From Pseudolabrys sp. (GTDB lineage Bacteria; Pseudomonadota; Alphaproteobacteria; Rhizobiales; Xanthobacteraceae): DNA of 8,060 nucleotides. The stretch is taken from positions 1-8,060 of the forward strand of contig JAHCKF010000146.1 of assembly GCA_026125925.1 (NCBI GenBank), read 5' to 3'. Position 1 is the stretch's first letter; each line of letters opens with the position of its first letter. The translations under genes were made by a program, and so were the position numbers. Positions 3,987 through 8,060 of the stretch are shown in pieces. Under the pieces are notes generated by a model. It was not told the DNA's origin. It searched no databases and was given only the letters and a program-made list of their open reading frames with translations.

Positions 3987-4640
3987 ATGCAAACCGGCAC
4001 ACCGATCGAAATCCCCGCGCGTCACGGCAAGGCGCTCAAGCTCGACAAGGGCCAGGCCGTGCGCCTCATCAATACGCACGGCACCCAGGTCGTCGATTGC
4101 TGGGCCTGGAACGCCGCCGACCTGACCGATCACATGAGCATGGAGGCGACGCGCGTCTGGCTGCAACGCCTCAATCCGGTGGTCGGCGACACCTTCGTCA
4201 CAGCGAAGCGCAATCCGATCCTGACCATCGTCGAGGACACCTCGCCGGGCGTGCACGACACCTTCATGGCGGCCTGCGACAGGCACCGCTACGAGCGCCT
4301 CGGCGTCAAGGAGTATCACCGCAACTGCCTCGACAACATGTTCGAGGGCATGCGGGAACTTGGGCTGGAGCCGCCGATGCCGATCCTCGCCTCGTTCAAC
4401 GTGTTCATGAACATCGCCGTCCAGAGCGACGGCCGCACGCTCCATACCGGACCGGTCGTCACCAAGGCCGGCGATTACATCACTTTGCGCGCCGATATGG
4501 ACTGCTACGTCGCCTTTTCCGCCTGCCCGCAGGACATCGTCAAGATCCAGGGCGAGGCCGGCGTGCCGCGCGCGGCGCATTATGTGGTGCTGGATCAGGG
4601 CTTCCCGTCACCGCCGCCGCGCGCCACCTGGGTGCCCTGA
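3987..4640 (+). CDS. DUF1989 / urea-carboxylase-associated family protein
   Basis: This 217-residue soluble protein belongs to DUF1989. The best-studied members, long annotated as urea-carboxylase-associated proteins, form the CgdA/CgdB carboxyguanidine deiminase of guanidine use. Family features visible are GTQVVDCWAW (32-41), SMEATR (51-56), HDTFMAACD (90-98), YHRNCLDNM (110-118), SFNVFMNI (136-143) and GDYITLRADMDCYVAFSACP (162-181). The spaced His, Cys and Asp residues could bind a metal or form an active site (inference). No partner subunit and no carboxylase gene is in view, so it may act on another substrate. The ATG at 3987 is preferred over the in-frame TTG at 3957 because the -10 box would fall inside the longer version. 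It is followed 69 bp later by a solute-binding protein on the same strand. Confidence 0.88.
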   Translation: MQTGTPIEIPARHGKALKLDKGQAVRLINTHGTQVVDCWAWNAADLTDHMSMEATRVWLQRLNPVVGDTFVTAKRNPILTIVEDTSPGVHDTFMAACDRHRYERLGVKEYHRNCLDNMFEGMRELGLEPPMPILASFNVFMNIAVQSDGRTLHTGPVVTKAGDYITLRADMDCYVAFSACPQDIVKIQGEAGVPRAAHYVVLDQGFPSPPPRATWVP

Positions 4641-4648
4641 CGCATTGA

Positions 4649-4664
4649 TGGCACGGTAATTGCT
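4649..4664 (+). promoter_or_regulatory. Sigma-54 (RpoN) promoter
   Basis: TGGCACGGTAATTGCT matches the sigma-54 core TGGCACG-N4-TTGCW at every defined base. The -24 GG is at 4650-4651 and the -12 GC at 4662-4663, with exactly ten bases between. The expected start is about 4675, leaving a leader of about 35 bases that contains GAGGAG (4696-4701) ahead of the ATG at 4710. The site is nine bases past the DUF1989 stop, in the only position that makes sense for driving the solute-binding protein. An enhancer-binding activator such as NtrC would be required; I found no convincing activator site. Confidence 0.88.
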
Positions 4665-4669
4665 CCAAA

Positions 4670-4694
4670 CTTGGGCAGCTTTTGTTGTCCCAAG
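4670..4694 (+). repeat. Inverted repeat across the predicted sigma-54 start point
   Basis: CTTGGG (4670-4675) and CCCAAG (4689-4694) are perfect complements separated by 13 bases. The left arm ends at the predicted sigma-54 start point, and the right arm ends two bases before the GAGGAG ribosome-binding site. As DNA it could be an operator; as RNA it would be only partly transcribed from that start. Six-base arms can arise by chance. Confidence 0.3.
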
Positions 4695-4709
4695 CGAGGA
4701 GTGGTTTTC

Positions 4710-5489
4710 ATGTCGTTTTTTCGTGCAGTGGCTGCCGGTTTATTGGGCGTCGCTTTGCTGTCGGGCGCCGCGCACGCGGACGCTCTCAGTGACATCGTCA
4801 AGGCCAAGGTCATCAAGGTCGCGGTGCCGCAGGATTTCGCGCCGTTCGGCTCGGCCGGCCCCGACCTCAAGCCGCAAGGTCTCGATGTCGACATGGCGAA
4901 TTACATTGCGGAACAGCTCGGCGTGAAGGCCGAGATCATCGCCGTCACCTCGGCGAACCGCATTCCCTATTTGCAGACCAAGAAGGCCGATCTCGTCATC
5001 TCCTCGCTCGGCAAGAACGCCGAGCGCGAGAAGGTCATCGACTTTTCGGTTCCCTATGCGCCGTTCTTCTCCGGCGTGTTCGGAACCAAGGACATCGCGG
5101 TCGCCAAGGTTGCCGATCTCGCCGGCAAGACCATCGGCGCGACGCGCGGCGCGATCGAGGAGCAGGAGATCACCAAGGACGCGCCGAAGGACACCACCAT
5201 CAAGCGCTTCGAGGACAACAACGCGACCATCGCCGCCTTCGTCTCCGGTCAGGTCGATCTGATCGCCACCGGCAACGTCGTTGCCGCCGCGATCACCGAG
5301 AAGAACCCGTCGCGCCCGGCGGTGACCAAATTCATCATGAAGGATTCGCCCTGCTATGTCGGCCTCAACAAGGATGAGCCGGCGCTGAAGGCCAAGGTGA
5401 ACGAGATCATCGAGAAGGCCAAGAAGGACGGTACGCTCAACAAGTTCTCCGAGAAGTGGCTGAAGAACCCGCTGCCGGCGAGTTTTTGA
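4710..5489 (+). CDS. ABC transporter periplasmic solute-binding protein, family 3
   Basis: This secreted receptor of the polar amino acid class (SBP_bac_3 fold) delivers a small solute to an inner-membrane ABC permease. The 259 residues begin with a Sec signal peptide (1-23, cleavage after GAAHA). Domain-1 signature GLDVDMANYIAEQLGVKAE starts at 57, NRIPYLQTKKADLVIS at 83-98, and EREKVIDFSVPY at 105-116 is the usual ligand-pocket segment. A second lobe follows (about 125-205) and the chain closes with GTLNKFSEKWLKNPLP. The ATG at 4710 is fixed by GAGGAG eight bases upstream and by the signal peptide. A sigma-54 promoter precedes it, suggesting nitrogen-status control. No permease or ATPase gene follows, since the next gene is convergent, so it is an orphan receptor here. 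Ligand unknown. Confidence 0.93.
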   Translation: MSFFRAVAAGLLGVALLSGAAHADALSDIVKAKVIKVAVPQDFAPFGSAGPDLKPQGLDVDMANYIAEQLGVKAEIIAVTSANRIPYLQTKKADLVISSLGKNAEREKVIDFSVPYAPFFSGVFGTKDIAVAKVADLAGKTIGATRGAIEEQEITKDAPKDTTIKRFEDNNATIAAFVSGQVDLIATGNVVAAAITEKNPSRPAVTKFIMKDSPCYVGLNKDEPALKAKVNEIIEKAKKDGTLNKFSEKWLKNPLPASF

Positions 5490-5510: not shown

Positions 5511-5615
5511 CTGTCATGGCCGGGCTTGACCCGGCCATCCCGCTTAGGGACGCACAATGCCCACCTAAGCGGGATCACCGGGTCTCGCGCCTTCGGCGCG
5601 GCCCGGTGATGACAG
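5511..5615. repeat. 105-bp four-way-junction palindromic element
   Basis: Four perfect stems abut with no unpaired base at the junction. The outer stem is CTGTCAT (5511-5517) with ATGACAG (5609-5615). Hairpin 1 is GGCCGGG (5518-5524) with CCCGGCC (5530-5536). Hairpin 2 is ATCCCGCTTAGG (5537-5548) with CCTAAGCGGGAT (5564-5575). Hairpin 3 is CACCGGG (5576-5582) with CCCGGTG (5602-5608), holding an inner CGCGCC/GGCGCG stem (5586-5591, 5595-5600). It sits in the 133-bp gap between convergent genes, where a two-way terminator would be useful, although T-tracts are lacking. Single arms resemble repeats I recall from Bradyrhizobium-type genomes. It is probably a mobile non-coding repeat. Confidence 0.85.
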
Positions 5616-5622
5616 CAGAATC

Positions 5623-6802
5623 TTACGCGCGCGCAGCTCTTGCCGAATTTGGTTGCGCCTGCCCTAGCTCTCTCAAAATCTCCTCATTGTGCTGCCCGAG
5701 CGTCGGCGGCGGCGTGTCGATGCGCGGGCCGCCGTGGGCAAACATGAACGGCGAAACCGGCACGCCATAGCCGCCGTTGACGCCGTTGCCGCCCGCGTGG
5801 CGGTGGATCACGCCGCGGCTTGCGATCTGCGGATCGGCCAACGCTTCGCCCATGGTGCGCACGCGCGCCGCCGGCACGTGGTTGGCCTGCAGGAACGTCT
5901 CCCACTCGTCCGCGGTGCGCGTCGGCATGATCTCCTCCAGCACCGCGATCTCGCGGGCGTGGTCGGCCTCGCGCTCGTCGTTCGTCTTCTTGATCATGTC
6001 CGGGCGGCCGAGCAGCCTCCACAGCCGCGCCTGCTGGCGGATGTTGGAGGCGCCAAGCATCACCAGTCCGTCCTTGGCCTGGAACGCGCCGTTGGTGGCG
6101 TGCGGATGGCGGTTGCCGTGGGGCTTGGGATGCACGCCGTTGCGCAGATAGCCGGTGACGAGCGAACTCATCAGGATCGTGGCGACGTCCAGCATCGCCA
6201 TGTCGACGCGCTGGCCCTGGCCGGTCTTCTCGCGCTGGAACAGCGCGGCGGAGAGCGCGAACGCGCCCGACATGCCGGTGGCGTAGTCGATCACGGGCGA
6301 ACCGAGCTTCACCGGATTGACCTCCCGGGTGCCGGTCATCGCCATGATGCCGGAGGTCGCCTGGATGACGTGGTCGTAGGCGGTCTGCTCGCGCCGCGGC
6401 CCGCCTTGCCCGAAGGCCGAAAACGAGGCGTAGATCAGCCGCGGGTTGATCTTCGACAAATCCTCGTAGCCGAGCCCCAGCGCCTCGAACGCGCCGGGCC
6501 GGTAGTTCTCCACGAACACGTCGGCGGTCGCGACCAGTTTTTTTCAGCACTTCGCGGTCGGCTTCCTTTTTCAAGTCGAGCGCGATCGAGCGCTTGTTGG
6601 AGGCTTGCGTCAGGAACGACGTGCCCATGCCGGCATGGTTGAGCGCCTTGTCGGTGCCACCGCCGCGGCTCTGGTCGGGGTCGTTCGGGTCCTCGACCTT
6701 GATCACGTCGGCGCCCAGCACGGCGAGCTGATAGGCCGCGAACGGCCCCGCCAGCTCGTGGGTCACGTCGATCACCCGGATGCCTTCGAACGGCCGCGTC
6801 AT
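5623..6802 (-). pseudogene. CaiB/BaiF family III CoA-transferase, frameshifted
   Basis: Family III enzymes move CoA between carboxylic acids through an aspartyl intermediate. The first frame starts at ATG 6802 (AGGAG at 6809-6813, six-base spacing) and gives the normal N-terminus FEGIRVIDVTHELAGPFAAY, GADVIKVEDP and NKRSIALDLKKEADREVLKK (to residue 88). At the A7 run (plus-strand T7, 6538-6544) that frame leaves homology. Removing one A restores LVATADVFVENYRPGAFEALG and the rest, for 392 residues, a normal length. The presumed catalytic Asp is D172 in VIDYATGMSGA, downstream of the shift. The rest of the protein is intact up to TAA at 5623-5625. A single homopolymer indel with no other decay suggests a recent mutation or a sequencing error rather than an old pseudogene. 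Substrate unknown. Confidence 0.88.
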
Positions 6803-6958: not shown

Positions 6959-8060
6959 ATGAACGCCCCCACCTTCGACTTCGCGCCCCTGCTCCGCCCC
7001 GGACTGCCGCAGCCCGCCGCGAAATGGACCGGGCTTGCGCCGTACAATTTCACCGGCGGCAACAACGACGCCGACGAGCTGCCGCTCGACGGCCTGATCG
7101 CGGCGGCAAACTCGGTGATGGCGCGCGAGGGGCGCACGCTTGCGACCTACGGGCTGGAAAGCGGCCCGCAAGGCTACCGGCCGCTACGCGAATTCCTGGC
7201 GGGAAAGCTCAAACGCGATGCGTCCATCGTTTGCTCCGCCGACGACATCCTCATCACCTCGGGCTCGCTCCAGGCGCTCGATCTCGTCAACGGCATCTTC
7301 CTCGCGCCGGGCGACACCGTGATCTGCGAGCGCGACTGCTACCAGGGCACGCTGAATCGCTTCACGCGGCTTGGCGTCACTGCGGTCGGCGTGCCGCTCG
7401 ACCGCGACGGCATGCGGATGGACGCGCTCGCCTCCGCCCTCGCCGATCTCAAGGCTCGCGGCGTGCGGCCGAAGTTCATCTACACCATTCCCACGGTGCA
7501 GAATCCGTCCGCGACCGTGATGAGCGAAGCACGCCGGCGCGAGCTGCTGCAGATCTCCAGCCGGTTTCGCGTACCGATCTTCGAGGACGAGTGCTATGCC
7601 GATCTGGTGTGGGACGGCCGCCGGCCGCAGGCGCTGCGCGGCATGGTCGGGGACGACCAGGTGGTGCACATCGGCTCGTTCTCCAAGTCGATCGCGCCGG
7701 CGTTGCGGCTGGGCTACCTGGTGGCGGGCTGGCCACTGATGAGCCGCATTCTCAGCATCAAGAACGACGGCGGATCCGGCGCCCTGGAGCAGATGGTGCT
7801 GGCCGAGTACTGCCAGGCGCACTTCGAGCCGCACGTGCAGGCGCTGCGACGAACCCTGCGCGGCAAGGTGCAGGCGCTGATGTCGGCGCTGCGTACGCAG
7901 TTCGGCACACAGGTCGAGTTCGACGATCCGGCCGGCGGCATCTTCCTGTGGGTCAAGCTGCCACCGCAGGTGGACACCACGCGCCTGGCACAGGTCGCCC
8001 TGCAGGCCGGCGTGGCGATCAACCCTGGAGCGGAGTGGATGACCGACAGCGTGATCGGAA
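6959..8060 (+). CDS. PLP-dependent aminotransferase, class I/II (partial, 3' end outside window)
   Basis: This is a fold-type I PLP enzyme of the aspartate-aminotransferase superfamily, of the kind annotated as MocR-like or 2-aminoadipate-type aminotransferase, but without a DNA-binding domain. The frame is open from ATG 6959 to the window end (367 residues). Visible are YGLESGPQGYRPLREFL (64-80), ITSGSLQALDL (99-109, phosphate-contact region), YTIPTVQNPSATVMS (175-189, N182/P183), FEDECYADL (208-216, D210 and Y213 contact PLP), and SFSKSIAPALRLGY (240-253) with the PLP lysine K243 and R250. PAGGIFLWV (324-332) begins the small domain. Perhaps the last 30 residues, including the arginine that binds the substrate carboxylate, are missing. 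AAGG (6949-6952) is a modest ribosome-binding site. It is divergent from the CoA-transferase. Substrate not deducible. Confidence 0.92.
   Translation, partial: MNAPTFDFAPLLRPGLPQPAAKWTGLAPYNFTGGNNDADELPLDGLIAAANSVMAREGRTLATYGLESGPQGYRPLREFLAGKLKRDASIVCSADDILITSGSLQALDLVNGIFLAPGDTVICERDCYQGTLNRFTRLGVTAVGVPLDRDGMRMDALASALADLKARGVRPKFIYTIPTVQNPSATVMSEARRRELLQISSRFRVPIFEDECYADLVWDGRRPQALRGMVGDDQVVHIGSFSKSIAPALRLGYLVAGWPLMSRILSIKNDGGSGALEQMVLAEYCQAHFEPHVQALRRTLRGKVQALMSALRTQFGTQVEFDDPAGGIFLWVKLPPQVDTTRLAQVALQAGVAINPGAEWMTDSVIG

What the first reader, a model, noticed from the sequence alone, without database searches (positions are those of the whole stretch)
4649..4664. Consensus-perfect sigma-54 promoter driving an orphan solute-binding protein
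All core positions of TGGCACG-N4-TTGCW are present with exact -24/-12 spacing. A ribosome-binding site and secreted solute receptor follow at the right distance. Eleven to twelve fixed bases make chance unlikely in 16 kb of strand (about 0.002 under equal base frequencies, my own estimate). The receptor is therefore probably under activator-dependent, likely nitrogen-related control, separate from the housekeeping-type promoter of the DUF1989 gene just upstream.
Basis: partly seen in the sequence, partly recalled or inferred. Interest (0 to 1): 0.72.

Follow-up and report, generated by a model that had tools for sequence, protein, structure and literature searches.

The report
Nitrogen-type promoter before solute receptor
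A DNA switch of the kind that bacteria use when nitrogen runs short really does sit before this nutrient-receptor gene and is kept in close relatives, but in those relatives the gene heads a normal uptake operon, so its lonely state here is either a local rearrangement or a sequence-assembly error.

Summary
The -24/-12 core TGGCACG-GTAA-TTGCT at 4649-4664 is present as stated and is almost certainly a real sigma-54 promoter of the SBP_bac_3 receptor gene 4710-5489. The core begins 61 nt before the ATG in four close relatives (89-93% identical protein) and 60 nt before it in more distant ones where a different gene lies upstream. Among 80 related loci it precedes this gene in 42 (at most 2 mismatches, GG/GC intact), against 0, 1 and 0 of 80 in three controls. 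RpoN was found in 9 of 9 relatives searched; G001 has NtrC and NtrX. NtrC control is likely, but no enhancer site was found. 'Orphan' fails in relatives: 80 of 80 loci have two permease genes behind the receptor. In the window these are missing; the join lies in a dispersed repeat and the right part resembles another lineage: rearrangement or chimeric assembly. Side results: some sister lineages carry a divergent LysR regulator instead of this promoter, and the receptor family lacks the residue that normally holds an amino acid's alpha-amino group. New member of a known kind.

The parts
4649..4664 (+). sigma-54 promoter core TGGCACG-N4-TTGCT (GG 4650-4651, GC 4662-4663)
   Evidence: conserved in relatives
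4672..4677 (+). TGGGCA over the predicted transcription start; identical in 9 of 9 sigma-54-type rows of the near clade (window included), role unknown
4696..4701 (+). GAGGAG ribosome-binding site, 8 nt before the ATG
   Evidence: read from the sequence
4710..5489 (+). receptor gene: secreted solute-binding protein, Pfam SBP_bac_3 (259 aa)
3987..4640 (+). DUF1989 gene upstream; ends 8 nt before the core
   Evidence: below the cut-offs of the urea-amidolyase-associated models
5511..5616 (.). dispersed repeat, present many times in related genomes; site of the join between the two parts of the window
5541..5647 (.). zone of the join: homology to the close relatives reaches 5540, homology to G062 starts at 5648
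5623..6802 (-). CoA-transferase-like gene with its reading frame broken near the T-run 6538-6544; not part of the promoter's unit
6959..8060 (+). aminotransferase class I/II gene (runs off the window); not part of the promoter's unit

Best explanation
4649-4664 is a sigma-54 (RpoN) promoter of the solute receptor gene 4710-5489. RNA polymerase with sigma-54 would wait there as a closed complex until an enhancer-binding activator, most likely NtrC under nitrogen shortage, opens it; transcription would start near 4674-4676. The promoter is old: it drives the same receptor at the head of a receptor-permease-permease-ATPase operon in relatives. In this window the rest of the operon is gone because of a join inside a dispersed repeat just behind the gene. 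Shown: core, position, conservation, operon in relatives, sigma-54 and NtrC genes in relatives. Inferred: RpoN dependence, NtrC as activator, start site.
For: Unique exact core. Core begins 61 nt before the ATG in the window, L001, L157, L158, L159 and 60 nt in L003, L005, L119; upstream of the ATG by the same spacing in L164; in L003, L005, L119, L164 a HupE gene and no DUF1989 match lies upstream, so the promoter goes with the receptor. In 9 rows the 12 fixed core positions average 95% identity, N4 81%, 25 nt upstream 55%, 45 nt downstream 74%. 42 of 80 loci have the core with at most 2 mismatches (25 with at most 1, 5 exact) against at most 1 of 80 in any control. RpoN in 9 of 9 relatives; 4 to 7 strong sigma-54 activator domains each; G001's four include NtrC, NtrX and FlbD above their cut-offs. 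Perfect cores in seven relatives: 28, against 7 for the reversed pattern; they precede nifH, nifB, urtA and others. NtrC-like dyads: 21 of 48 rows, 5.8 expected.
Against: No NtrC-like dyad in the window or the other 8 rows of the near clade; no such dyad before the 28 perfect cores either, so the test has little power in these bacteria. 38 of 80 loci, and 16 of 23 family loci counted, have no core within 2 mismatches, among them the close relatives L002 and L160 and the Bradyrhizobium loci L006-L008 and L011-L014. In G001 the exact core occurs 2 times against 1 for the control. The window's own genome is not held, so RpoN and NtrC were seen in relatives only.
Confidence: 0.93

Rival explanations
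1. The receptor's orphan state is an assembly artefact: two organisms' contigs were joined at a shared dispersed repeat, and in the real genome the permease and ATPase genes follow.
For: The join lies at 5541-5647, overlapping a repeat found many times in relatives (G001: 62 matches to the 2.6-kb query). Left of it the window is 84-92% identical to the four close relatives; right of it 83% to G062 over 2.4 kb, while the six genus-level genomes searched have only CoA-transferases of at most 37% identity and an aminotransferase of 68-70%. G062's match to the left part is 76-79%. The CoA-transferase frame is broken at a T-run, a typical sequencing fault.
Against: Both parts belong to the same broad family and G+C content does not jump (61-73% left, 68% right). 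A real transfer or recombination at the repeat would look the same.
Confidence: 0.5
2. The loss is real: recombination at the repeat removed or moved the permease and ATPase genes, and the receptor now works alone with another transporter's membrane parts or as a sensor, as the lone receptor ArgT does with HisQMP in Salmonella (that partnership is recalled).
For: The window as given has no permease. Stand-alone receptors under sigma-54 and NtrC exist: argT is listed as a known case (PMC3844500, passages).
Against: 80 of 80 related loci keep both permeases, 76 of 80 also the ATPase; no second genome with a lone receptor was seen.
Confidence: 0.4
3. The activator is not NtrC but NtrX, FlbD or the fourth NtrC-like protein.
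For: G001 carries these too; no NtrC-like dyad found in the near clade.
Against: Perfect cores in relatives stand before nitrogen-supply genes; NtrC-like dyads stand before the same gene in several beta and gamma relatives.
Confidence: 0.2
4. The match is chance and the receptor is read from the DUF1989 gene's promoter.
For: The DUF1989 gene is on the same strand and ends 69 nt before the ATG.
Against: Core conservation far above controls, also where DUF1989 is absent.
Confidence: 0.03

Closest known systems
argT of Salmonella (lysine/arginine/ornithine receptor, sigma-54 and NtrC)
   Same: Receptor of the same broad fold family with its own sigma-54 promoter, listed as a known NtrC case (PMC3844500, passages).
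   Different: Not an ortholog: the window protein scores 56 bits against the ArgT model with cut-off 440 and lacks the alpha-amino pocket.
glnHPQ and gltIJKL operons of Salmonella
   Same: Amino-acid-type ABC operons headed by the receptor gene and under sigma-54 with NtrC (glnHPQ known, gltIJKL predicted), like the full operon in the window's relatives.
   Different: Different receptor families by NCBIfam scores.
RpoN sites before receptor genes in Bradyrhizobium sp. DOA9
   Same: Same core before several ABC receptor genes, an isochorismatase gene and urtA (PMC13207237, passages of Table 1).
   Different: Most Bradyrhizobium loci of this receptor fetched here (L004, L006-L008, L011-L014) have no core.

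Membership tests
sigma-54 (-24/-12) promoter | GG at -24 and GC at -12 with exact spacing and the wider core | tested here: met
sigma-54 (-24/-12) promoter | core kept in relatives while its surroundings change | tested here: met
   but 38 of 80 loci lack it
sigma-54 (-24/-12) promoter | RpoN and enhancer-binding activators encoded in the organism | tested here: inconclusive
   present in 9 of 9 relatives; own genome not held
sigma-54 (-24/-12) promoter | transcription start and dependence on rpoN | not testable with these tools
   needs an experiment
NtrC regulon | NtrC-binding dyad 80-150 nt upstream | tested here: inconclusive
   0 of 9 near-clade rows; 21 of 48 rows overall, 5.8 expected; enteric consensus has no power at alphaproteobacterial sites
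SBP_bac_3 receptors (PF00497) | family profile and fold | tested here: met
   120 bits, cut-off 26.4; model pLDDT 88.9, matches to amino-acid receptors
classical amino-acid receptors of this family (AncQR, LAO, GlnBP) | Arg that binds the ligand's alpha-carboxylate | tested here: met
   R106 in 104 of 104 rows, aligned with AncQR R83 (roles from PMC5431781)
classical amino-acid receptors of this family (AncQR, LAO, GlnBP) | Asp that binds the alpha-amino group | tested here: not met
   G188 in 104 of 104 rows, aligned with AncQR D167
orphan receptor gene | no transporter genes beside it | tested here: inconclusive
   absent in the window, present in 80 of 80 related loci; the join lies in a repeat

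The most novel reading that the evidence does not exclude
This receptor and its operon form an unnamed nitrogen-scavenging uptake system across alpha-, beta- and gammaproteobacteria whose ligand is not a plain alpha-amino acid (alpha-carboxylate Arg kept, alpha-amino Asp and the Thr replaced by Gly throughout), and whose control has switched repeatedly, even within one genus-level clade, between a sigma-54 promoter and a divergent LysR regulator; in the window's organism the receptor is left alone under the sigma-54 promoter.
Probability: 0.3. Interest if true: 0.5.

Novelty: new member of a known kind. Interest (0 to 1): 0.32.

Why it matters
It gives a receptor family that records name only 'transporter substrate-binding domain-containing protein' or 'amino acid ABC transporter substrate-binding protein' a likely physiological setting, nitrogen shortage, and a testable ligand prediction (a carboxylate without a free alpha-amino group). 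It is also a compact example of one operon swapping between sigma-54 and LysR control among close relatives. And it warns that 'orphan' genes next to dispersed repeats should be checked against relatives before a function is built on their isolation.

Tried and rejected
Chance match: rejected by conservation. Read-through from DUF1989 as the only source: unlikely, since the core stays where DUF1989 is absent. NtrC dyad in the window: none within 2 mismatches; deriving a local dyad from the 28 perfect cores of seven relatives failed (0 of 28 exact at each spacing 3-11, and 1-mismatch counts not above the control stretch). A leader hairpin: folds of 9 leaders were no stronger than shuffles, except that the row for L159 was cut at a false ATG and does not count. 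Sigma-70 promoter between 3900 and 5700: none found. A terminator-like stem at 4660-4678 overlaps the core; 1.6 such hits are expected by chance over both strands and 2 were found. In one search loci were read in contig orientation, so its values for minus-strand matches are void; one search repeats the close rows in the right orientation. The protein called DAPD was translated in a wrong frame and only marks the region; the dapD-side synteny rests on the DNA comparison. In one search the simple gene caller mis-placed several genes; operon counts rest. Papers: for PMC13207237, PMC5491218, PMC12316311, PMC3844500 and PMC5431781 I saw passages only; all other papers only as search listings. The searches for orphan receptors found 2 papers that hold one of the three phrases; I did not read them.

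Full report
Observation. The core TGGCACG-GTAA-TTGCT is at 4649-4664 on the + strand, the only exact match in the window (mean 0.01 in dinucleotide shuffles, 1 of 200 shuffles with a match). The next best sites have 3 mismatches. The wider consensus with Y before TGG, as printed for Bradyrhizobium (PMC13207237, passages), has one mismatch here. Behind it come GAGGAG at 4696-4701 and the ATG at 4710.

The gene. 4710-5489 encodes a 259-residue receptor of Pfam family SBP_bac_3 (120 bits); the best NCBIfam model, lysine/arginine/ornithine receptors, stays below its cut-off (143.8 against 256.35). The gene before it is a DUF1989 gene that ends 8 nt before the core.

Conservation. In the four closest sigma-54-type relatives (L001, L157, L158, L159; 89-93% identity) the core begins 61 nt before the ATG with 0, 0, 1 and 1 mismatches, and in L003, L005 and L119 60 nt before it with 1, 0 and 1; L164 has it with 1 mismatch and the same core-to-ATG distance. 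L003, L005, L119 and L164 have a HupE gene and no DUF1989 match upstream. Over these 9 rows (window included) the fixed core positions average 95% identity, the N4 81%, the 25 nt upstream 55% and the 45 nt downstream 74%; in the five genus-level rows the values are 97, 65, 66 and 87%. A hexamer TGGGCA over the expected start (4672-4677) is identical in 9 of 9.

Counts with controls. Within 260 to 20 nt before the receptor, with GG and GC intact, the core occurs with 0, at most 1 and at most 2 mismatches in 5, 25 and 42 of 80 loci. Controls on the same 80: opposite strand 0, 0, 0; reversed pattern 0, 0, 1; stretch inside the gene 0, 0, 0. In the family loci (23 of 24 counted; one too near a contig end) the numbers are 1, 6 and 7. 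The two sets overlap in part, and near-identical species are counted separately. So 38 of 80 and 16 of 23 lack the site, among them the close relatives L002 and L160 (the genome of L160 gave the family locus L108).

Machinery. The window's own genome is not held. In 9 of 9 relatives searched the sigma-54 DNA-binding domain is present (4 of 14 control genomes have it). Sigma-54 activator domains over 150 bits number 4 to 7 per genome (weaker hits are not informative, as all 14 control genomes ring). The four of G001 are NtrC (731 bits, cut-off 558.6), NtrX (738.5, 600), FlbD (820, 750) and one that reaches no cut-off.

What perfect cores do in these bacteria. Seven relatives hold 28 exact cores against 7 for the reversed pattern; in G001 it is 2 against 1. 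I profiled the genes behind 17 of the 28. Seven look nitrogen-related: nifH, nifB and urtA above their cut-offs; a biuret-amidohydrolase-like gene (G001's only other perfect core), an AtzE-like amidase and an EtfB-like (FixA-type, my reading) gene below cut-offs; and an acetamidase/formamidase family gene. Three are transport genes (DctP-like, SBP_bac_5, TctB), three others are a Rieske, a PfkB and a GntR-aminotransferase protein, and four gave no match at the limits used. NtrC-like dyads (TGCAC-N7-GTGCA, at most 2 mismatches) stand upstream of the core in 21 of 48 rows against 5.8 expected by shuffling, chiefly in beta- and gammaproteobacteria, but in 0 of the 9 near-clade rows.

Orphan or not. 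All 80 loci have both permease genes directly behind the receptor and 76 also the ATPase. The close relatives L001, L157 and L159 share the window's upstream order including HupE, MscS and DUF1989 (L158 shows no MscS match) and have the full transporter behind the receptor. In the window the homology to L157 and L160 runs to 5540, into a repeat at 5511-5616 that occurs many times in related genomes. Beyond 5648 the window matches G062 at 83% over 2.4 kb, while six genus-level genomes have CoA-transferases of at most 37% identity and the aminotransferase at 68-70% elsewhere in the genome; G062 in turn matches the left part at 76-79%. A transfer with recombination at the repeat and a chimeric assembly both explain this. 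I give the chimera 0.5 and a real loss 0.4.

Alternative control. L002, L160, L122, L114, L117 and L120 have no core but a LysR gene pointing away, 147-190 nt before the receptor, and a box with ATATATTGGA between; L009 and L015 have both the LysR gene with the box and a 2-mismatch core; L004 has the LysR gene (box not examined) (the family was profiled for L002 only, the rest by similarity). The box is absent in 8 of 8 sigma-54-type loci tested. On a quick tree of 48 receptors the window's clade of 7 (SH-aLRT 99) holds five sigma-54-type and two LysR-type rows, and the label needs 9 changes against a shuffled mean of 15.5, 0 of 500 shuffles as low.

Pocket. In AncQR and LAO receptors, Arg binds the ligand's alpha-carboxylate and an Asp its alpha-amino group (PMC5431781, passages). 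The window keeps the Arg (R106) but has Gly at the Asp (G188, AncQR D167) and at the Thr (G101, AncQR T78); each of these is the same in 104 of 104 rows (window and 103 homologs; 11 rows left out, namely L073, which was mis-framed, and 10 duplicate stretches; near-copies remain). AncQR's E17 aligns with P40, which is invariant in the 41-row alignment. The model is confident (pLDDT 88.9) and resembles amino-acid receptors. The ligand is therefore probably not an ordinary amino acid held in the usual way; this is inference.

Verdict. A real, conserved sigma-54 promoter of a familiar kind; nitrogen control likely; orphan status doubtful.

Noticed in passing
window 5511-5616; also 1243-1337: Dispersed repeats found many times in related genomes; the first marks the join behind the receptor, the second lies between the two dap genes.
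   Followed up: partly
window 6530-6548: The CoA-transferase-like gene's frame is broken near a run of seven T; relatives have it intact.
   Followed up: partly
window 4672-4677: TGGGCA over the expected start site is identical in 9 of 9 near-clade rows although the surroundings vary.
   Followed up: no
L002:389-1294 and upstream of the receptor in L160, L122, L114, L117, L120, L009, L015: Divergent LysR gene and an ATATATTGGA box stand before the same receptor operon, in most cases in place of the sigma-54 core.
   Followed up: partly
window 4710-5489 (residues 101, 106, 188): Receptor family with the carboxylate Arg but Gly in place of the alpha-amino Asp in 104 of 104 rows.
   Followed up: partly
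G001:C20:53834-53849 (L131): The only other exact sigma-54 core in the close relative G001 precedes a biuret-amidohydrolase-like gene.
   Followed up: no
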